Source: Deltaproteobacteria bacterium
Lineage (GTDB): Bacteria > Desulfobacterota > Syntrophorhabdia > Syntrophorhabdales > Syntrophorhabdaceae
Assembly: GCA_022711595.1 (NCBI GenBank)
Contig: JAKLET010000002.1
Coordinates: 124,001 to 188,000, forward strand
Length of the DNA: 64,000 nt
Direction of reading: 5' to 3'
Shown here: positions 14,363-52,326 of the stretch, in pieces
Layout of the letters: the number at the start of each line of letters is the position of its first letter
How positions within the stretch are numbered: position 1 is the first letter of the stretch
Notes under the pieces: generated by a model
Told to the model about the DNA's origin: nothing
Seen by the model: only the letters and a program-made list of their open reading frames with translations
Databases searched by the model: none
Position numbers and translations under genes: made by a program

Positions 14363-17300
14363 TCAAACAGGTCCGTGAACGCTTTCAAGGAGAGCCACGG
14401 GAAAGCTGAGAAAGGCATCGCGGCACGCAAGGCCCGTAATCCCTTCTTTTTCAGTTTTCATGAGGGTCTCTCCGGTAAGGACGTTGACATAACCCAGGTC
14501 GTTTGTCCCTGCGTGCGTGACTATCATGGTGTCTTCCCATATATCATGAAAGAGTGCATCGGATAACGGCAGTATTTTCGTGAGGAACCTCGGCACGACA
14601 GCAATGATCGTCGTATCAAGGAAACGGCGCGCGAAGGCTATGACATGCTCCGAACGTGTCCCTATAGCTTCAAGCGGTATATACTCACCTTTTTCAAAAA
14701 TTTCGCGCATTTCTTTCCTGAGCCGCAGTGCCCTGTATGCTGCATATAACTTTATTCTGCCGTCTTCCATGGTCTTTGTCAATTCATTCGCGTATTCGAG
14801 GGGGCCTTTTTTATCAAGTTCCTGTTTCATTTCATCGAGTATGCGTGTGCGTGATGTGAAATCTACGGACCTCCTGTTGTCGGGGTCGACGAGGCTTAAG
14901 TCCCACAGCTCCGTGCCCTGATAGAAGTCGGGAATGCCGGGAGCACATATCTTGAGAAGGACCTGGGAGACAGAATTGTACATGCCGAAGAAGGCTATCT
15001 TTTTCTGAAAGGGCATGAAATCATCAAGGAAGGGGTTTTCCCTGCTTCTGTCCAGAATGGAATCGATGAACACCGTGAGGGCTTCTTCATAGATCGTGTA
15101 CGGATTGATCCAGCTCGTGTTGACCTTGGATTCCTTTGCCGCTTTTATCATGTAGTCCTTGATCCTTTTTTTATACAGGGCGTATTCCTCTTCGTTCTGT
15201 TCACCGAATGGCCAGCTTCCCAGGAGGGTCTGGTAGAGGAGATATTCTTCATTCCTGTCCGGTACGCGGAGGTTATTGACAATGATCTTTTTCTTTCTGT
15301 TTATTTTCGCCCAGAGGAGCAAATGACCCTGCCACTCGCCGGGTATCTCGGAGAGGACACTGATCCGCGCCCTCACGTCCTCCCCGCGCTTTGTGTCGTG
15401 GGTGGCCGATGTGATGAGCGCGTATGGCCAGTTCTTGATCCGTTCTATATTCTGCCCGTGAAAGGTGTCGGGGAGTGTGCCGAAGCGATCAGGGCTGCCC
15501 CCGACCTCGTTAAGACATACAAGGCGATTGTAGATGTAAAATGCTGTATCTTCAACGCCCTTCGCCATGACGGGCCCGGTGATCTGCTGGAACCTCATGA
15601 CAAAATTGAGCCACCCATTTTTCGTTTTGTCATCCATGCCGGGGTGATATTTCAAAAGAAGCACGTCTTTCATAAACAGGAATATGGATTCGTTCATGAC
15701 GGGGTTTCTTCTTGCCGCCCTGGAGACCGCAAGTTCAATGTAGTGCCGGTCCCTTTCTTTCACATCGGGCCCGTTGATGTAGGTCCTGTAGACGGGAAAA
15801 CAGGCGATGATCTCAATGATGGTTTTGATAAGACTGTTAAGAGTGAAATCGCGGGTCTGGCGGTTCTGCTCGGTTATCAGGTTCAGGTGGTGCCCGAGTG
15901 TGTTGACCTCGCTCGACATTGCCACCTGCATGACAAGCTTTTTGCTTTCGTACACTATCTCCTGGAAATCCATCTGCAGTCTTGTGAATTTGCGGTAAAG
16001 GGCGTCAAAGGCCTTGACATTGCGGCTGTCAACGAATAGCCCGGTCAATGAATTGAGAAAGACATAGCCTGTTGTACTGAAAAGCGGCCATTCGGCGGGC
16101 ATGATCTCGCCCCGGCCCAGTATCTTCTCGGCGACGATGTAAAAAGGTTTGAAACGACTTTCGGACTGCAGCATTTCGTCGTAACGCTTTGAAATGGATG
16201 ACTCGATGTATCCATTGCCATAGGGGAGGTCCACATCTTCCCTTACTTTTTCAACATGGGACATCATGGCGATCGAGAAGCAGCGTCGCTGGAGACGGTC
16301 AAAATATTCGGACGGGTCGTACAGCCCGTCAGGATGGTCCACCCTGAGCCCGGTCACTTTCCCGGTCCCGATGAGATCGAAGATGAACCGGTGTGTTTCT
16401 TCAAAGACCGATGGTTCTTCGACCCTTATGGAGGCGAGGCTGTTGATGTCAAAAAACCTCCGGTAATTGATCTCTTCCGTGGCGACCTGCCAATGCGACA
16501 GGCGGTAGATCTGTCTGGAAAGCAGGCCGTCAAGAAGATCGAAGCTCTCCCTGTCGCCGGGGGTTCCGTTGAAAGCGGCGACATTTGAATCGATCAGGGT
16601 CTGCATGTCTGCATCCGACCGGTATACTTCAAAGAGCCTCTTTTTTATGATCTCTTTCTCCCGGCTTCTCACGGCCGCCATGGCCGGATCGGTCTGCGTA
16701 TATGGCGGAAGGTTCTCGATGGCGGTGATGATGCTCAGCAGTTCGTTGAAGCCGTCATCGCTGTCCGTTCCGGTCCCGCCAACCCCGTGGATGTTCAGGG
16801 CCAGGATGTCCCGGTATGTCTCCGGCAGCACCGGCAGCCGGTGATCGTAAAATCTGATGAAAAATGAACCTTCGTCGAAAAAGAGCTGTATCTCACCATT
16901 CTCCAGCACGTTGCCATACTGGTCGCCAAGAAAAGGCAGAAGGACCTTGTTGAAGAGTTCGTCCTTTACGGGGTCCCAGTCGATATCAAAAAAAGCGGCA
17001 AAAGTGGAGGATGGCCCATTTTCCATCACATCCATCCAGTATGCGTTCTCACCCCCCGTGATACACATGTGGTTGGGAACGATGTCGAGCACCTGTCCCA
17101 TGCCGTACCGCTTCAGTATGTCAACGAACAGATCGTATTCTTCCTGAGTCCCGATCTCCCGGTTTATCCGGGTGTGGTCCGTTATATCGTAACCATGAAG
17201 GCTGCCGGGGCGGGCAGCCAGGTAGGGAGAGGCATAGACATCGCTTATGCCAAGCTCGGCAAGATAGGGGACGATTGCCGCCGCATCGGTGAAGCGGAAA

Positions 17301-17368
17301 TTCCTGTTGAACTGGACCCTGTAGGTCGCAACGGGTATGCGGAGATTATGAAAGAAAGGCCTTTCCAT
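14363..17368 (-). CDS. treY: Malto-oligosyltrehalose synthase
   Basis: 1001 residues, GH13 family 26. It isomerises the reducing-end alpha-1,4 bond of malto-oligosaccharides to an alpha,alpha-1,1 bond. Visible motifs: TYRVQFN at the start, YASPYLAARPGSLHGYD, region I LDIVPNHM, region II GLRVDHPDG with the nucleophile Asp, region III YIVAEKIL with the acid Glu, region IV TSATHDTKRGED. GAGGTAAACC lies before ATG 17368 and is formed by the end of the GH57 gene, three bases upstream. With TreZ in the same operon it completes the glucan-to-trehalose route. The length is somewhat over the usual 700-950. Confidence 0.95.
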   Translation of the reverse strand: MERPFFHNLRIPVATYRVQFNRNFRFTDAAAIVPYLAELGISDVYASPYLAARPGSLHGYDITDHTRINREIGTQEEYDLFVDILKRYGMGQVLDIVPNHMCITGGENAYWMDVMENGPSSTFAAFFDIDWDPVKDELFNKVLLPFLGDQYGNVLENGEIQLFFDEGSFFIRFYDHRLPVLPETYRDILALNIHGVGGTGTDSDDGFNELLSIITAIENLPPYTQTDPAMAAVRSREKEIIKKRLFEVYRSDADMQTLIDSNVAAFNGTPGDRESFDLLDGLLSRQIYRLSHWQVATEEINYRRFFDINSLASIRVEEPSVFEETHRFIFDLIGTGKVTGLRVDHPDGLYDPSEYFDRLQRRCFSIAMMSHVEKVREDVDLPYGNGYIESSISKRYDEMLQSESRFKPFYIVAEKILGRGEIMPAEWPLFSTTGYVFLNSLTGLFVDSRNVKAFDALYRKFTRLQMDFQEIVYESKKLVMQVAMSSEVNTLGHHLNLITEQNRQTRDFTLNSLIKTIIEIIACFPVYRTYINGPDVKERDRHYIELAVSRAARRNPVMNESIFLFMKDVLLLKYHPGMDDKTKNGWLNFVMRFQQITGPVMAKGVEDTAFYIYNRLVCLNEVGGSPDRFGTLPDTFHGQNIERIKNWPYALITSATHDTKRGEDVRARISVLSEIPGEWQGHLLLWAKINRKKKIIVNNLRVPDRNEEYLLYQTLLGSWPFGEQNEEEYALYKKRIKDYMIKAAKESKVNTSWINPYTIYEEALTVFIDSILDRSRENPFLDDFMPFQKKIAFFGMYNSVSQVLLKICAPGIPDFYQGTELWDLSLVDPDNRRSVDFTSRTRILDEMKQELDKKGPLEYANELTKTMEDGRIKLYAAYRALRLRKEMREIFEKGEYIPLEAIGTRSEHVIAFARRFLDTTIIAVVPRFLTKILPLSDALFHDIWEDTMIVTHAGTNDLGYVNVLTGETLMKTEKEGITGLACRDAFLSFPVALLESVHGPV

Positions 17369-17371
17369 GGT

Positions 17372-19822
17372 TTACCTCATCTGCTTCCCCGGTATCGAGC
17401 CGGTATCGAAATTGAACGTTTCCCCGAGCTTGAGGAAAGCCCGTACCCATAGCGCAGCGTCGGGGTCTTCCTGCGCGGTTTTTTTCGATATATCGTGATA
17501 GACAGACCGTGTCATGGCATAGTAGGTGTTCTGCGCCTCCCAGAGGTTTACATTGATGGGGAGGAGCCGGGCAAGTTCCATCGTTGTCTGCATGGCGTCT
17601 GGGAGCGACAGGTCGAATGGGTTTTCCTGAAAACGGGTCATGAGGTCCTTGAGCCTGCCCCTTATGATCAATTCTGTCTCGAGCGTATCGTAAGAGAGGC
17701 CCCATTTTACGATCTCCCTTACAATGCCCGAGATCATATTGCCGTCGGGAGTGTCCTGTAAAAAGGCCTTTCTCAGGTCGAGGTTGAGAATGAACTCCGC
17801 GGCGGCAAGGAACGCGTTCGGGACGGTCATGCCCGCTTCGCGGAAGAAGTTCATAAGGATCCGTTCGCTTTCAAAGAGGTCCCTGTAAACGATCTCGTAT
17901 TTCTCGAAAGTGTCTTTGAGGAGGAGGTCCATGACCGCGCGCTGCCGGTCCCTGAAAAGGCTGGTAAAGGAGTAATTGTGCATGCCGAAGTGGTCGTCCA
18001 TCAGGTGGAAGATGTCCGCGAAATCGCCCCTTTCGAAGGCGTTGATGATCTCTGAGCGCATTGCCCTGAATACATCCTCTCCGCGGTATTCCCTCGCGCC
18101 GCCATTGAAGGCGTGACCTCCCATGTGCAGGAGGGCGAAGCTTATGAGTTCCGAATCGCACGTTATCCGCGAAGTGACAAGGACCTTGCCGATGGCCAGG
18201 GTTGTCTTGCCGGCGGGTATTTTGAAATAATCCTCCCTGTCCACCGAAAAACTGTATATTTCAGTGTGGTCCCCGAAATCCTCGATCACCGAGGACACCG
18301 CATAGTGGACGGCGACCTTTTTTAGATCAATCGCAACGGGTTTTACGAACTTCTCGAAGATGCCGGCGCCATCCTTGTGCTCGGGGATGTTGCTTTTCGC
18401 CTTCCTGAGCATTGATGTGAAAGCCTTTTCCAGGTCATTTCCGTGGACCTGTCCGGCGAGCTGGATCGCCCGCCCGGCGTATTGCAGGACCTGGACTGTT
18501 TCTATACCTGACAGCTCATCGAAGAACCATCCGCAGCTCGTATACATGAGAAGGCAGTGTCGCTGCGCTTCAAGGAGCTTTAATGCGGAAGCCCTTTCAT
18601 CGGCTGAAAGTGGCTTTCGGCCGTGTTTCTCGAAAAAATTGTCGAGAGTCCCTGTGCTACGATCCAGGATGACCTCTATGTAGTCATCGCGGGCCGCCCA
18701 GGGATCGTGGAGATATCCGATCGCGCTTGTGGTATACAGATCGGCGAGCTCATCGCGAAGCCAGTCGAGGGCATCACGCAGCGGGCTCCTCCACATCTGG
18801 TTCCATTCGGGATATCCTCCTGAATTGCACCCACAGTCGCTGCGCCAGCGTTCGATGCCGTGAGCGCAACTCCAGGACGTGTTCTCATAGATCTTTACCT
18901 CGTGCCCGGGGGGGAATTTTTCCAGGAATTCACCGTAATTGGTCAAAGCGGCAAGATTGTTCTTTTCTATATGATGCAAAGCAAAGGCAAGCGCCATATC
19001 GCCGAAGGTGTGATGGTGGCCGTATGTTTCCCCGTCTGTTGCTATATGCATGAGCTGACTCCAGGGTCTTGCATCGGAAAACCCGGAGAGGAGTCTTTGC
19101 GCCAGGTCTTCCCCGCTTTTAAGAAGGCCCTCGAAGGCAACAGCACGTGATATCGGACCGTCGTAGAAGAATACTGTTATCCTTTGTCCCGAAGGGAGCC
19201 TGACCAGGTAGGGGCGTGTGGGGTCTATGCGTCCCGCGCTCACATCCTTCCACTTGCCTGCACCTGTCTTTCTCACTCTCCAGGCCTGGTGGGGCGCGAG
19301 GATGGTGAAGCGGATCCCCGCCCGGGCGAGGTGCTCGAGCGTCTCAAGGTCCACAGCAGTCTCGGCAAGCCACATACCTTCGGGGAGGCGCCCGAACCTT
19401 TTCTGGAAATCCCTGATCCCCCAGATGACCTGGGTGCGCTTGTCACGAGAGTTGGCCAAGGGCATTATTATATGGTTGTATACCTGGGCCAGGGCGCTGC
19501 CGTGCCCCGAGTGCATGGAGGCGCTGAGCCTGTCGGCTTCGAGTATCGCTTCATAGACCGCGGGGGCGAATTTTTCCATCCATGCAAGCAGCGTCGGGCC
19601 GAAATTGAAGCTGATCTTTGAATAATTGCTGACAATATCGGTGATACGGCCGCCGCCGTTGAAGATCCTTGACGCACAGTTCGGCGCATAGCACTCCGCG
19701 GTTATGCGTTCGTTCCAATCGTGATAAGGATAGGCCGAGTCCTGCAACTCGACGGATTCGAGCCATGGGTTCTCCCGGGGGGGTTGATAGAAATGACAGT
19801 GAACGCAGATATAACGTTCCAT
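17372..19822 (-). CDS. GH57 family glycoside hydrolase (DUF3536-type)
   Basis: 816 residues. The N-terminal GH57 barrel starts HCHFYQPPRENPW; the likely nucleophile Glu is in GMWLAETAVD and the acid Asp in IATDGETYGHHHTFG. The large C-terminal region (about 400-816) fits the DUF3536-type architecture. GH57 enzymes act on alpha-glucans as amylases, glucanotransferases or branching enzymes; the activity of this subgroup is not established as far as I know. Its start overlaps the treZ stop by one base (TGATG), and treY follows three bases after its end, so it is embedded in the trehalose pathway and probably trims, debranches or elongates the glucan substrate. Confidence 0.85.
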   Translation of the reverse strand: MERYICVHCHFYQPPRENPWLESVELQDSAYPYHDWNERITAECYAPNCASRIFNGGGRITDIVSNYSKISFNFGPTLLAWMEKFAPAVYEAILEADRLSASMHSGHGSALAQVYNHIIMPLANSRDKRTQVIWGIRDFQKRFGRLPEGMWLAETAVDLETLEHLARAGIRFTILAPHQAWRVRKTGAGKWKDVSAGRIDPTRPYLVRLPSGQRITVFFYDGPISRAVAFEGLLKSGEDLAQRLLSGFSDARPWSQLMHIATDGETYGHHHTFGDMALAFALHHIEKNNLAALTNYGEFLEKFPPGHEVKIYENTSWSCAHGIERWRSDCGCNSGGYPEWNQMWRSPLRDALDWLRDELADLYTTSAIGYLHDPWAARDDYIEVILDRSTGTLDNFFEKHGRKPLSADERASALKLLEAQRHCLLMYTSCGWFFDELSGIETVQVLQYAGRAIQLAGQVHGNDLEKAFTSMLRKAKSNIPEHKDGAGIFEKFVKPVAIDLKKVAVHYAVSSVIEDFGDHTEIYSFSVDREDYFKIPAGKTTLAIGKVLVTSRITCDSELISFALLHMGGHAFNGGAREYRGEDVFRAMRSEIINAFERGDFADIFHLMDDHFGMHNYSFTSLFRDRQRAVMDLLLKDTFEKYEIVYRDLFESERILMNFFREAGMTVPNAFLAAAEFILNLDLRKAFLQDTPDGNMISGIVREIVKWGLSYDTLETELIIRGRLKDLMTRFQENPFDLSLPDAMQTTMELARLLPINVNLWEAQNTYYAMTRSVYHDISKKTAQEDPDAALWVRAFLKLGETFNFDTGSIPGKQMR

Positions 19823-21699
19823 CAGCCCACCTTTCTGTATACGACCGAGTTAAAGGGGCCGATCGTGATGGACGGTATTGACTCTCCGGTTGCCGAAAGC
19901 CCGATGTCAGGGGGAGCCGTCTCTCCTTCGCCGCCCCATCGCGGTGACGCGGTGTCGACGATCTTTGTCCAGGAGGCTGCAGGCAGCGGGGAGCGGATGG
20001 GAACCCCAGATCCACTGAAGTTGAAAAAGCAGGAAATATCGCCGGTTCTGAGGGGCATGAGAACACGCAGAACATTGTTTCCGCTCAGCAGTTTCACTCC
20101 GGGCCGTTTCTTTTTCATCTCCCAGGGCCGCAGGGAACGGCGAAGTCCCGTAAGGTGCCTGTAAAAGTCATACAGCGAGCTGTGCGGTTCGGCAAAACGG
20201 ACCTCCCTGTTGACCTTTGACCGCATGAAGGTCTCTTCCGACTGTGGATCGGGGATGTCCCCTTTCCAGCCAAAAGAGGAGAACTCTTCAGCGCGGCCTG
20301 ACCTGACAGCGTCAATAAGCGTTTTGTCCGAATGGTCAACGAAATAGAGGAATGGGGCAGTTTCACCGTATTCTTCCCCCATGAAAATAAGGGGGATGCT
20401 GGATGAAAGAAGGACGGCGACGGCCGCTGTCCTCAATTCTGCCATCGTCACCATGCTCGCAAGTCTGTCACCCAGGGCCCTGTTGCCCACCTGGTCATGG
20501 TTCTGGGAGAATACGACGAACCTGGCTGCGGGCATGTGCCTTGAGGGGCTTCCATGCCTTTTCCGGCGATAGTGTGAATATTGGCCGGTGTATACATAAC
20601 CCTCTCGGTGCGCCTTTGCCAGGCATTCGATAGTGCCGAAGTCGCAATAATACCCGCTTCGCTCCCCCGTCAGGATAGTGTGGAGGGCATGGTGAAAATC
20701 GTCGTTCCACTGAGCGTCAAATCCGGACCCTCCCTGTTTTGTCGGGGTCACGGTACGGATGTCGTTGAGGTCGCTCTCGGCTATGAGGTGTGCCGTCCTC
20801 CCGAGTTCGCGGCCCCGCTTGTTGACCGCTTCTGACAGCTCTTCCAGAAAGGTCTGCGCGCTGAAGTCGAAGATACCGTGTATCGCGTCTATTCTCAAGG
20901 CGTCGATGTGGTAATCAGTTATCCATGCAAGGGCGCTTTCAATGAAAAAATGCCGGACCTCGTCGCTGAAGGGGCCATCAAAATTGATGGCATCTCCCCA
21001 GGGCGTGCGGTAACGATCGGTAAAATACGGGCCGTATCTGCCGAGATAGTTGCCCTCGGGGCCAAGATGGTTGTACACAACATCAAGAATGACGGAAATA
21101 TCCTGTTTGTGGCATGCGTCTACAAAGGTTTTAAGACCTTCGGGGCCGCCATAGGAGTTATGGACCGCGAATGGGAATGTGCCGTCATAACCCCAATTGT
21201 ATCTCCCCGGGAACTGGGCAACGGGCATGAGCTCAACCGCGTTGACGCCAAGGTCTTTCAGGTATTCGATACACCCCGCAGCCGCTTTAAGGGTCCCTTC
21301 ACCTGTGAAGGCGCCTGTATGAATCTCGTATATAATATACCGGGCAAGAGGTATGCCTTTCCATGCCCTATCGCTCCAGCTGAACAGGGTGTGGTCCACG
21401 ATCCGGGAAGGGCCGTGAACACCGTCCGGCTGGGACCGGGAAGCGGGATCGGCAAGCGGGTATCTGCCGTCGATGATGTAGCGGTACATGCCGTAATGCC
21501 CGGTGTTGTCCACGGATCCTTCAAAATAGTCTCCCTTGCAGCGTATGAGGTCCGTAGTATGGTGCATGTCATGTTCCAACCCTGTTTCGACGGATACCAT
21601 GCTGGCAAAGGGTGCCCATACGCGGAAGAATGTTGAGCCGTCCCGAAAGGGCAGGGCGCCAAGGTACGTTCCGATACGTATGTCATTCGATTTCTTCAT
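19822..21699 (-). CDS. treZ: Malto-oligosyltrehalose trehalohydrolase
   Basis: 625 residues. An N-terminal carbohydrate-binding-48-like domain (about 1-110) precedes a GH13 family 10 barrel. Motifs: WGYDGTFPFAVH, region I LDVVYNHLGPEG, region II ALRIDAIHG with the nucleophile, region III LIAESDLND, region IV FSQNHDQVGNR. TreZ releases free trehalose from maltooligosyl-trehalose made by TreY. ATG 21699 has only a weak ribosome site. It is the first gene of the treZ-GH57-treY-glgC-type operon; its promoter must lie in the repeat-rich 290-base gap upstream, which also holds a terminator for the preceding small gene. Confidence 0.94.
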   Translation of the reverse strand: MKKSNDIRIGTYLGALPFRDGSTFFRVWAPFASMVSVETGLEHDMHHTTDLIRCKGDYFEGSVDNTGHYGMYRYIIDGRYPLADPASRSQPDGVHGPSRIVDHTLFSWSDRAWKGIPLARYIIYEIHTGAFTGEGTLKAAAGCIEYLKDLGVNAVELMPVAQFPGRYNWGYDGTFPFAVHNSYGGPEGLKTFVDACHKQDISVILDVVYNHLGPEGNYLGRYGPYFTDRYRTPWGDAINFDGPFSDEVRHFFIESALAWITDYHIDALRIDAIHGIFDFSAQTFLEELSEAVNKRGRELGRTAHLIAESDLNDIRTVTPTKQGGSGFDAQWNDDFHHALHTILTGERSGYYCDFGTIECLAKAHREGYVYTGQYSHYRRKRHGSPSRHMPAARFVVFSQNHDQVGNRALGDRLASMVTMAELRTAAVAVLLSSSIPLIFMGEEYGETAPFLYFVDHSDKTLIDAVRSGRAEEFSSFGWKGDIPDPQSEETFMRSKVNREVRFAEPHSSLYDFYRHLTGLRRSLRPWEMKKKRPGVKLLSGNNVLRVLMPLRTGDISCFFNFSGSGVPIRSPLPAASWTKIVDTASPRWGGEGETAPPDIGLSATGESIPSITIGPFNSVVYRKVG

Positions 21700-33838: not shown

Positions 33839-33913
<75 letters not shown>

Positions 33914-34030: not shown

Positions 34031-34105
34031 GGCGGCATAGCCAAGTGGTAAGGCGACGGTCTGCAAAACCGTTATTCTCCGGTTCAAATCCGGATGCCGC
34101 CTCCA
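34031..34105 (+). tRNA. tRNA-Cys (GCA)
   Basis: Acceptor GGCGGCA/TGCCGCC, anticodon loop CTGCAAA with GCA, T arm CCGGTTCAAATCCGG, discriminator T and encoded CCA (34103-34105). It is probably co-transcribed with tRNA-Gly from the promoter at 33800. Confidence 0.95.
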
Positions 34106-50841: not shown

Positions 50842-52326
50842 CTATTTCTTCGGATAAATGGTGACCTTGGCCTTTTTTGATTTATCTCCGTCGACTATCG
50901 CGAGGTCTTCGTTGACATAATAGGTGACGACGTCACCTTCGACCCTGTCCTTGCCGGATGTGACCACGGCGTTCCCCGTGAGTATGATCTCACCTTGATT
51001 GTTATCGAAAAAAGCCTCCCTGCATGTCGCGGTCCTGTTCTGTTTAATGATCTTGACATTGCCTTTGGCATTGGCCTTTTCGATCTCGTTGGTGTCTGCG
51101 TTCATGAAGGCTTCCATGGTGTCTGAATAGATATATAGGTCATCCTGCTTGGCAATGACGTTGCCCTTGAAGACGACGTAGTTCTCCTTGTCGAAACCTT
51201 CCATGGTATCGGAAACTATGTCGATGGGTTTTTTCTTGTCAATGAACCCCAGCCCCTCTTTGGCCTTCGGCTTGTCCTGACCAGGCTGTTTTGAGGAGGT
51301 ATCCGCCGGAGTCGCTTTCGCCGTCTCTGTCTTTGGCGCCAGCGGTTTAGTTGTTTCGACAGGCGAGGCTTTCGCCGTCTGTGGTGCCTGGGGTTTGTCT
51401 GACGGAGCTGTTTTTTCCGGTTGTGCCGCCTGTGGCGCCGGCGGTTTCAGATCGATGTCCCTCTTTTTCTGTTCGGTATAGGCAGGGGGTGCCTGGGGTT
51501 TGTCTGACGGGGCTGTTTTTTCCGGTTGTGCCGCCTGTGGTGCCGGGGTGCCGACGCCTGTTTTTGATGGTTTCTCATCAACGGGAACTATCTTGAGGGA
51601 TTTGCGCTCCCTTGTGGTAGTACGGGCGTAAATGCTTTTCGGATATTCAATGCGCAGCCTCTCCAGGTAACGATCGCTCTTGTCCTGGTTGCCAAGTTCC
51701 CTGTGCGACTGTACGAGATAGAAAAGGGCCTTGGCCGTGTTTTTGGAATCAGGGAACTGTTTGAGCATGCCTTCAAGCCTGATGATCGCACCGTTATACT
51801 GGGCTGTCTTAAAATAGAACTCACCGACATAAAGCTCGCGGTCGGCAAGCTTCTGGATGAACTTTTCAAGTCTCGGCTGAGCTTCTCTGGCGTAATTGCT
51901 TGCGGGGTAGCGGTTTTTGAGATACGTGATCCTTTCGATCCCTTTGATCGTGTAAGCCTGGTCCCGGTCAACGCTTGGCGAGAGTTTTTCGTAACATTCA
52001 CTGAGACGGAAAAGAACGTAGGGAATGTTTTCCTCGTCGGGGTGGGCCTTGAAATAATCTTCATAGGTGCCCGAGGCAAGTACGTAGTCTTTTTTCAGAA
52101 AATAGGTGTCACCGAGCTTAACGGTAGCGACAAGGGCCATTGGATCAAAAGGGTATTGCTCGCGTATGGCATTGAACTTCGCGATGGCCTTTTCGTATTT
52201 TTTTGCTTTCATGAGGTCGACACCGGCGACATAGAGGTCGACGGGGTTTTCGGCCTTTTTCGGCGCTTTTGACGCGCAGGAAACCAGTACAACAAAAACA
52301 ATGAGGAGAAGAGCAATTTTTCGCAT
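50842..52326 (-). CDS. BamD-like lipoprotein fused to an LptA/OstA-like domain
   Basis: 494 residues. A lipoprotein signal peptide has lipobox LVSC with Cys 17. Residues about 28-245 are TPR helices in BamD order (YVAGVDLMKAKKYEKAIAKFNAI, SECYEKL, YPASNYAREA). A Pro/Ala/Lys-rich linker (about 255-360) contains a 35-residue unit occurring twice in tandem. Residues about 365-490 form an OstA/LptA-type beta domain (DIVSDTMEGFDKENYVVFKGNVIAKQ, IYSDTMEAF, GNAVVTSGKDRVEGD). BamD helps insert outer-membrane proteins; LptA bridges LPS across the periplasm. One outer-membrane-anchored protein combining both is unusual. It diverges from rsmG. Confidence 0.85.
   Translation of the reverse strand: MRKIALLLIVFVVLVSCASKAPKKAENPVDLYVAGVDLMKAKKYEKAIAKFNAIREQYPFDPMALVATVKLGDTYFLKKDYVLASGTYEDYFKAHPDEENIPYVLFRLSECYEKLSPSVDRDQAYTIKGIERITYLKNRYPASNYAREAQPRLEKFIQKLADRELYVGEFYFKTAQYNGAIIRLEGMLKQFPDSKNTAKALFYLVQSHRELGNQDKSDRYLERLRIEYPKSIYARTTTRERKSLKIVPVDEKPSKTGVGTPAPQAAQPEKTAPSDKPQAPPAYTEQKKRDIDLKPPAPQAAQPEKTAPSDKPQAPQTAKASPVETTKPLAPKTETAKATPADTSSKQPGQDKPKAKEGLGFIDKKKPIDIVSDTMEGFDKENYVVFKGNVIAKQDDLYIYSDTMEAFMNADTNEIEKANAKGNVKIIKQNRTATCREAFFDNNQGEIILTGNAVVTSGKDRVEGDVVTYYVNEDLAIVDGDKSKKAKVTIYPKK
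51383..51545 (-). repeat. 105-bp duplication within the linker of the BamD-LptA-like gene
   Basis: About 58 bases beginning at 51383 recur nearly unchanged from 51488, a 105-base period that encodes the 35-residue linker repeat (PAPQAAQPEKTAPSDK core). Confidence 0.8.

What the first reader, a model, noticed from the sequence alone, without database searches (positions are those of the whole stretch)
50842..52326. Fusion of a BamD-like lipoprotein with an LptA/OstA-like domain
One open frame joins a lipobox, BamD-type TPRs, a long Pro/Ala-rich linker and an OstA beta domain. BamD belongs to the outer-membrane protein insertion machine and LptA to the LPS bridge; these are normally separate proteins of separate complexes. 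A lipid-anchored tether about 100 residues long could place the LPS-receiving domain next to the BAM complex, for example to assist LptD assembly. I know of no described system like this.
Basis: partly seen in the sequence, partly recalled or inferred. Interest (0 to 1): 0.75.

Follow-up and report, generated by a model that had tools for sequence, protein, structure and literature searches.

The report
BamD fused to an LptA domain
In a group of anaerobic bacteria the essential outer-membrane assembly protein BamD carries, on a long flexible arm, a copy of the LPS-carrying protein LptA, so two normally separate machines that build the outer membrane are joined in one conserved protein.

Summary
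One intact 494-codon gene (50842-52326, minus strand) encodes a lipobox, a complete BamD, a linker of about 124 residues rich in Pro, Ala and Lys, and a complete LptA jellyroll. Both ends pass NCBI's curated cut-offs for BamD and LptA. The predicted fold of the C-terminal domain matches solved LptA best (Z 15.8).
It is no artefact: the fusion is in 44 of 46 genomes of class Syntrophorhabdia (19 genera; the other two lack the gene altogether), with conserved gene order. The LptA domain is under strong purifying selection (dN/dS about 0.03).
The fusion is this genome's only BamD. No stand-alone LptA exists in the class: the canonical lptC-lptA place holds a second fusion, LptC-LptA. BamD-LptA fusions also occur in at least seven other Desulfobacterota families, and there a normal LptA is kept. 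So the BamD-borne domain is an extra LptA unit tethered to BAM, not merely a relocated LptA.
Best reading: it pairs with the LptD N-domain at the outer membrane and couples LptD assembly by BAM to the LPS bridge. This is inferred. I found no description of the fusion. New variant of known parts.

The parts
50842..52326 (-). Whole BamD-LptA fusion gene, 494 aa
   Evidence: one fused frame in 44 of 46 genomes of the class
52276..52326 (-). Lipoprotein signal peptide with lipobox LVSC (Cys17), residues 1-17
   Evidence: Read from sequence; Cys17 invariant in alignment A1
51613..52269 (-). BamD TPR domain, residues 20-238
   Evidence: TIGR03302 197.9 bits, YfiO 128.9 bits; solved BamD chains matched
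51241..51612 (-). Pro/Ala/Lys-rich linker, residues 239-362; 47-193 residues in relatives
   Evidence: pLDDT under 50 over residues 240-360
51439..51480 (-). Conserved short motif inside the variable linker (YTEQKKRDIDLKPP), residues 283-296; candidate docking peptide
   Evidence: Pattern found in 26 of 30 class sequences; invariant positions in A1
51382..51546 (-). Two exact copies of a 20-residue repeat (PAPQAAQPEKTAPSDKPQAP) at residues 261-280 and 296-315, flanking the motif
50845..51240 (-). LptA/OstA jellyroll domain, residues 363-494
   Evidence: TIGR03002 82.8 bits over cut-off; aligns to E. coli LptA 2r19 residues 6-141; predicted fold best matches LptA/LptH/LptD/LptC

Best explanation
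The gene makes the organism's only BamD, with an LptA jellyroll hung from it on a long flexible linker. Shown: domain identities, lipobox, conservation, and absence of any stand-alone LptA in the class or of a second BamD in this genome. Inferred: BamD is lipid-anchored at the outer membrane and sits on BamA as usual; the linker (contour about 45 nm, typical reach about 7 nm) lets the LptA domain reach the N-terminal jellyroll of LptD while LptD is being inserted by BAM or just after, and pair with it edge to edge as free LptA does in E. coli. This would capture LptD at BAM and hand each new LPS translocon a bridge element, coupling LptD assembly to the LPS bridge. In Syntrophorhabdia, where the canonical LptA is fused to LptC, the inferred bridge would be LptC - LptA(on LptC) - LptA(on BamD) - LptD, with every unit membrane-tethered and no free LptA. 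The LptA domain can be the terminal bridge unit, an assembly aid for LptD, or both; I cannot separate these.
For: Both domains pass curated cut-offs. The LptA domain is full length, and the predicted model (pLDDT 73.6, pTM 0.70) has LptA as best solved match (Z 15.8, 2.7 A over 121 residues), followed by LptH, the LptD N-domain and LptC. The LptA domain is as constrained as BamD (dN/dS 0.031 and 0.047) while the linker is not (0.28). Fusion in 44 of 46 class genomes with no stand-alone LptA in any, and conserved neighbours. BamA, LptD, LptC-LptA, LptB and LpxC are present. In at least seven other families the fusion coexists with a stand-alone LptA of 177-240 aa, so it adds something beyond ordinary LptA. 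In E. coli, BamA and BamD directly coordinate LptD-LptE assembly (stated in PMC10567701), the LptD N-domain binds the LptA C-terminal region, and that contact is gated by LptD maturation (PMC3944529).
Against: No interaction with LptD, LptC-LptA or BamA was modelled or measured. Any LPS binding is inferred from homology. The LptD contact rests on E. coli biology. Some BamD-LptA domains in other families fall just below the LptA equivalog cut-off (59.6-70.8 bits against 71.7), and family f13 is very divergent, so function may differ there.
Confidence: 0.5

Rival explanations
1. Simple relocation: in Syntrophorhabdia the BamD-borne domain is just the organism's LptA, anchored to the outer membrane for convenience, and BAM plays no part in LPS export.
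For: No stand-alone LptA in the class. The BamD-borne domain passes the LptA equivalog cut-off while the LptC-borne one does not (82.8 and 43.9 bits against 71.7).
Against: The LptC-borne domain sits exactly at the canonical lptA place before lptB. Other families keep a normal LptA as well as the fusion, so the fusion is not generally a replacement.
Confidence: 0.22
2. LPS or lipid sensor: the jellyroll binds LPS (or another lipid) at the BAM complex and adjusts BAM activity to LPS supply, without being part of the bridge.
For: Jellyrolls of this fold bind LPS (established for LptA); tethering to BamD puts it at BAM; the linker carries a conserved short motif that could dock on BamA or BamD.
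Against: No direct evidence; the domain keeps the full LptA length, which a pure sensor would not need.
Confidence: 0.13
3. Unconnected fusion: the two domains work independently and the linkage has no functional meaning.
For: Domain shuffling around LptA is common in this phylum: FlgO-like-LptA and LptC-LptA forms exist.
Against: Kept in all genera of a class and in at least seven further families, with tightly conserved LptA domains and a conserved motif inside an otherwise variable linker.
Confidence: 0.12
4. Assembly or sequencing artefact joining two genes.
For: None found.
Against: Independent genomes from public collections carry the same frame, with dN/dS far below 1 in both domains.
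Confidence: 0.01

Closest known systems
BamD (YfiO; TIGR03302 / PF13525)
   Same: Lipobox, TPR domain of full length, sole copy in the genome, above curated cut-offs
   Different: Carries a 124-residue linker and a complete LptA jellyroll at the C-terminus
LptA (YhbN; TIGR03002) and LptH
   Same: Full-length jellyroll, aligned to E. coli LptA residues 6-141, above the equivalog cut-off; best fold match
   Different: Not a free periplasmic protein: fused to a lipid-anchored BAM subunit; no signal peptide of its own
LptM / LptE / BepA (helpers of LptD assembly at BAM in E. coli)
   Same: Proposed role: help LptD assembly or maturation at BAM; LptM and LptE are lipoproteins
   Different: No sequence relation claimed or tested; here the helper would be an LptA module built into BamD
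LptC-LptA fusion of the same class (window genome C27, 308 aa)
   Same: Another LptA jellyroll fused to an envelope-machine subunit
   Different: Inner-membrane side, fused to LptC, no flexible linker, divergent jellyroll

Membership tests
BamD | Match to the BamD family model above curated cut-off | tested here: met
   TIGR03302 197.9 bits, cut-off 81.4
BamD | Lipoprotein signal with lipobox Cys, outer-membrane type | tested here: met
   LVSC17 with Ala at +2; Cys invariant in relatives
BamD | Sole BamD of a genome that has BamA | tested here: met
   Only one TIGR03302 match in G000 at E<=1e-12; BamA 645 bits
BamD | Physical complex with BamA | not testable with these tools
   Would need complex prediction or pull-down
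LptA | Match to the LptA equivalog model above curated cut-off | tested here: met
   TIGR03002 82.8 bits, cut-off 71.7
LptA | Jellyroll (beta-taco) fold | tested here: met
   Model of residues 359-494; LptA best match, Z 15.8
LptA | Free periplasmic protein with its own signal peptide | tested here: not met
   Domain is the C-terminal part of one frame with BamD
LptA | Gene between lptC and lptB | tested here: not met
   Gene lies between rsmG-parA-parB-atp and a thioesterase; the lptC-lptB place holds LptC-LptA
LptA | Binds LPS and contacts LptC and LptD | not testable with these tools
   No complex prediction or assay available

The most novel reading that the evidence does not exclude
BAM and the LPS bridge are covalently coupled: the BamD-borne LptA domain captures LptD during insertion, so that every new LPS translocon is made already linked to the bridge; in Syntrophorhabdia the whole bridge consists of membrane-tethered units with no free LptA.
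Probability: 0.35. Interest if true: 0.82.

Novelty: new variant of a known kind. Interest (0 to 1): 0.62.

Why it matters
How LptD assembly by BAM is coordinated with the LPS bridge is an open question. A natural, conserved covalent link between BamD and an LptA unit suggests the two machines meet at LptD, and gives a ready-made construct to test that. The LptC-LptA plus BamD-LptA arrangement of Syntrophorhabdia also predicts an LPS bridge with a fixed number of units, instead of the variable number usually assumed for free LptA.

Tried and rejected
Artefact or frameshift: rejected. Conserved Cys435 in the LptA domain as a mark of the fusion or a redox link to LptD: rejected, since stand-alone LptAs of several families have Cys at the same column and some fused ones have Ser. 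One origin of all BamD-LptA fusions: undecided. Holding them together as one clade is not rejected on either domain (AU p 0.37 for LptA, 0.08 for BamD), but families f74 and f96, in the same class as f10, give only a stand-alone LptA and have unfused BamD frames, and f13 groups with its own stand-alone LptA; the trees have too few columns. Full-length fold: poor (pLDDT 54, 9 sequences), so the LptA domain was folded alone. Paper searches found no description of a BamD-LptA fusion; most subscription journals and bioRxiv preprints are not in that library.

Full report
Observation. The window holds an uninterrupted frame at 50842-52326 on the minus strand, 494 codons. It begins MRKIALLLIVFVVLVSC, a lipoprotein signal with lipobox LVSC. 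Residues 1-232 match the BamD model TIGR03302 with 197.9 bits (cut-off 81.4), and residues 363-492 match the LptA equivalog model TIGR03002 over positions 5-141 of 142 with 82.8 bits (cut-off 71.7); Pfam agrees. The LptA-domain profile aligns to E. coli LptA of known structure over residues 6-141, and the BamD part matches solved BamD chains.

Fold. A full-length model was poor (pLDDT 54.2, only 9 sequences) but places residues 240-360 below pLDDT 50, as expected for a disordered linker. The LptA domain alone (136 residues) gave pLDDT 73.6 and pTM 0.70. Its best solved matches are LptA (2r1a, Z 15.8, 2.7 A over 121 residues), then LptH, the LptD N-domain and LptC.

Not an artefact. The fusion lies in one frame in 44 of 46 genomes of the class, in 19 of 19 genera and three families; the remaining two genomes gave no match to either half, so the gene is missing from those assemblies rather than unfused. 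Named relatives include Syntrophorhabdus sp. PtaB.Bin184 and PtaB.Bin047, which places the window in Syntrophorhabdia. Gene order around the fusion is conserved in the closest relatives: atp genes, parB, parA, rsmG, fusion, thioesterase, thioredoxin. Pairwise codon comparison gives median dN/dS 0.047 for BamD, 0.28 for the linker and 0.031 for the LptA domain. So the LptA domain is at least as constrained as BamD.

Linker. It is 124 residues here, 47-193 in relatives, and contains two exact copies of a 20-residue repeat. Inside it lies a conserved island of the form [YF]xExKK[RK]xI[DE]LxP, found by pattern in 26 of 30 class sequences; family f10 linkers hold a similar (F/Y)EEExR segment. I suggest a docking peptide; this is a guess.

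The rest of the machinery in the genome. The jellyroll family PF03968 occurs at exactly three places: the fusion, a 308-aa protein and a frame of 731 codons. The 308-aa protein is LptC (74.4 bits, above cut-off) followed by a divergent LptA domain (43.9 bits, below cut-off) and sits in the canonical locus, an SIS/CBS-domain KdsD-type isomerase - LptC-LptA - lptB - rpoN. The third is LptD. BamA (645 bits) and LpxC are present. The fusion is the only strong BamD. Across all 46 class genomes the same categories recur and no stand-alone LptA is seen (the 198-residue frame in G005 begins near a contig end).

Beyond the class. A scan of 395 Desulfobacterota genomes found further BamD frames of 405-953 aa and long LptA frames. 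Reading them showed BamD + LptA in families coded f10, f11, f13, f15, f23, f26 and f44. In one other class (f11 + f44, 22 genomes) long fused-size frames occur in 17 genomes, six of which I read directly. In f10 they occur in 16 of 17 genomes, while f74 and f96 of the same class give only a stand-alone LptA and have unfused BamD frames. All of these lineages also carry a stand-alone LptA of 177-240 aa in at least some genomes, and where I looked (f10, L111) it follows lptC. Only in Syntrophorhabdia has that LptA been absorbed into LptC. Hence the BamD-borne LptA is generally additional to the canonical one. Trees do not decide between one origin and several.

Mechanism. From E. coli work: LptD is inserted by BAM with direct help of BamA and BamD (stated in PMC10567701); [quoted passage not shown] a stable LptA oligomer is not strictly essential (abstract of PMC5575297). 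A jellyroll hanging from BamD by a flexible arm is well placed to meet the LptD N-domain as LptD is assembled. I therefore favour a role in joining LptD assembly to the LPS bridge. Shown: domains, fold, conservation, genome context. Inferred: outer-membrane location, contact with LptD, LPS passage.

Novelty. BamD and LptA are well known; their fusion was not found in the papers searched (a 2026 BAM review, PMC13067283, was checked by term search). I rate it a new variant of a known kind, widespread and under strong selection, with a testable functional prediction.

Noticed in passing
Window genome G000:C27 (L002:937-1863; L154:2521-3447), and frames of about 305 aa in 43 of 46 class genomes: LptC fused to a divergent LptA jellyroll at the canonical lptC-lptA-lptB place; no free LptA was found in the class.
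   Followed up: yes
L092-L096, L105, L107, L108 (families f36, f70, f76, f99, f108): LptA of other Desulfobacterota carries an N-terminal domain of about 200 residues with an AVLPFE-type start that weakly matches FlgO (tested on L094), followed by a linker and the LptA jellyroll; often next to lptC.
   Followed up: partly
L080-L082 (family f23), L105: BamD-LptA proteins of 832-953 aa end in a Cds6_C-type NTF2-like domain (tested on L080) after a second long linker; L105, a FlgO-like-LptA protein, ends in a similar domain by eye.
   Followed up: partly
L083, L133-L135 (family f13): BamD followed by a very divergent LptA-like domain that may be a separate fusion event or a fast-evolving copy.
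   Followed up: partly
Window 33839-33910 and 34031-34102: Two tRNA genes of equal length and near-equal score about 120 bases apart on the plus strand.
   Followed up: no
Window 14363-21699: Cluster of two alpha-amylase-family proteins and a GH57/DUF3536 protein, next to a nucleotidyltransferase and a glycosyltransferase.
   Followed up: no
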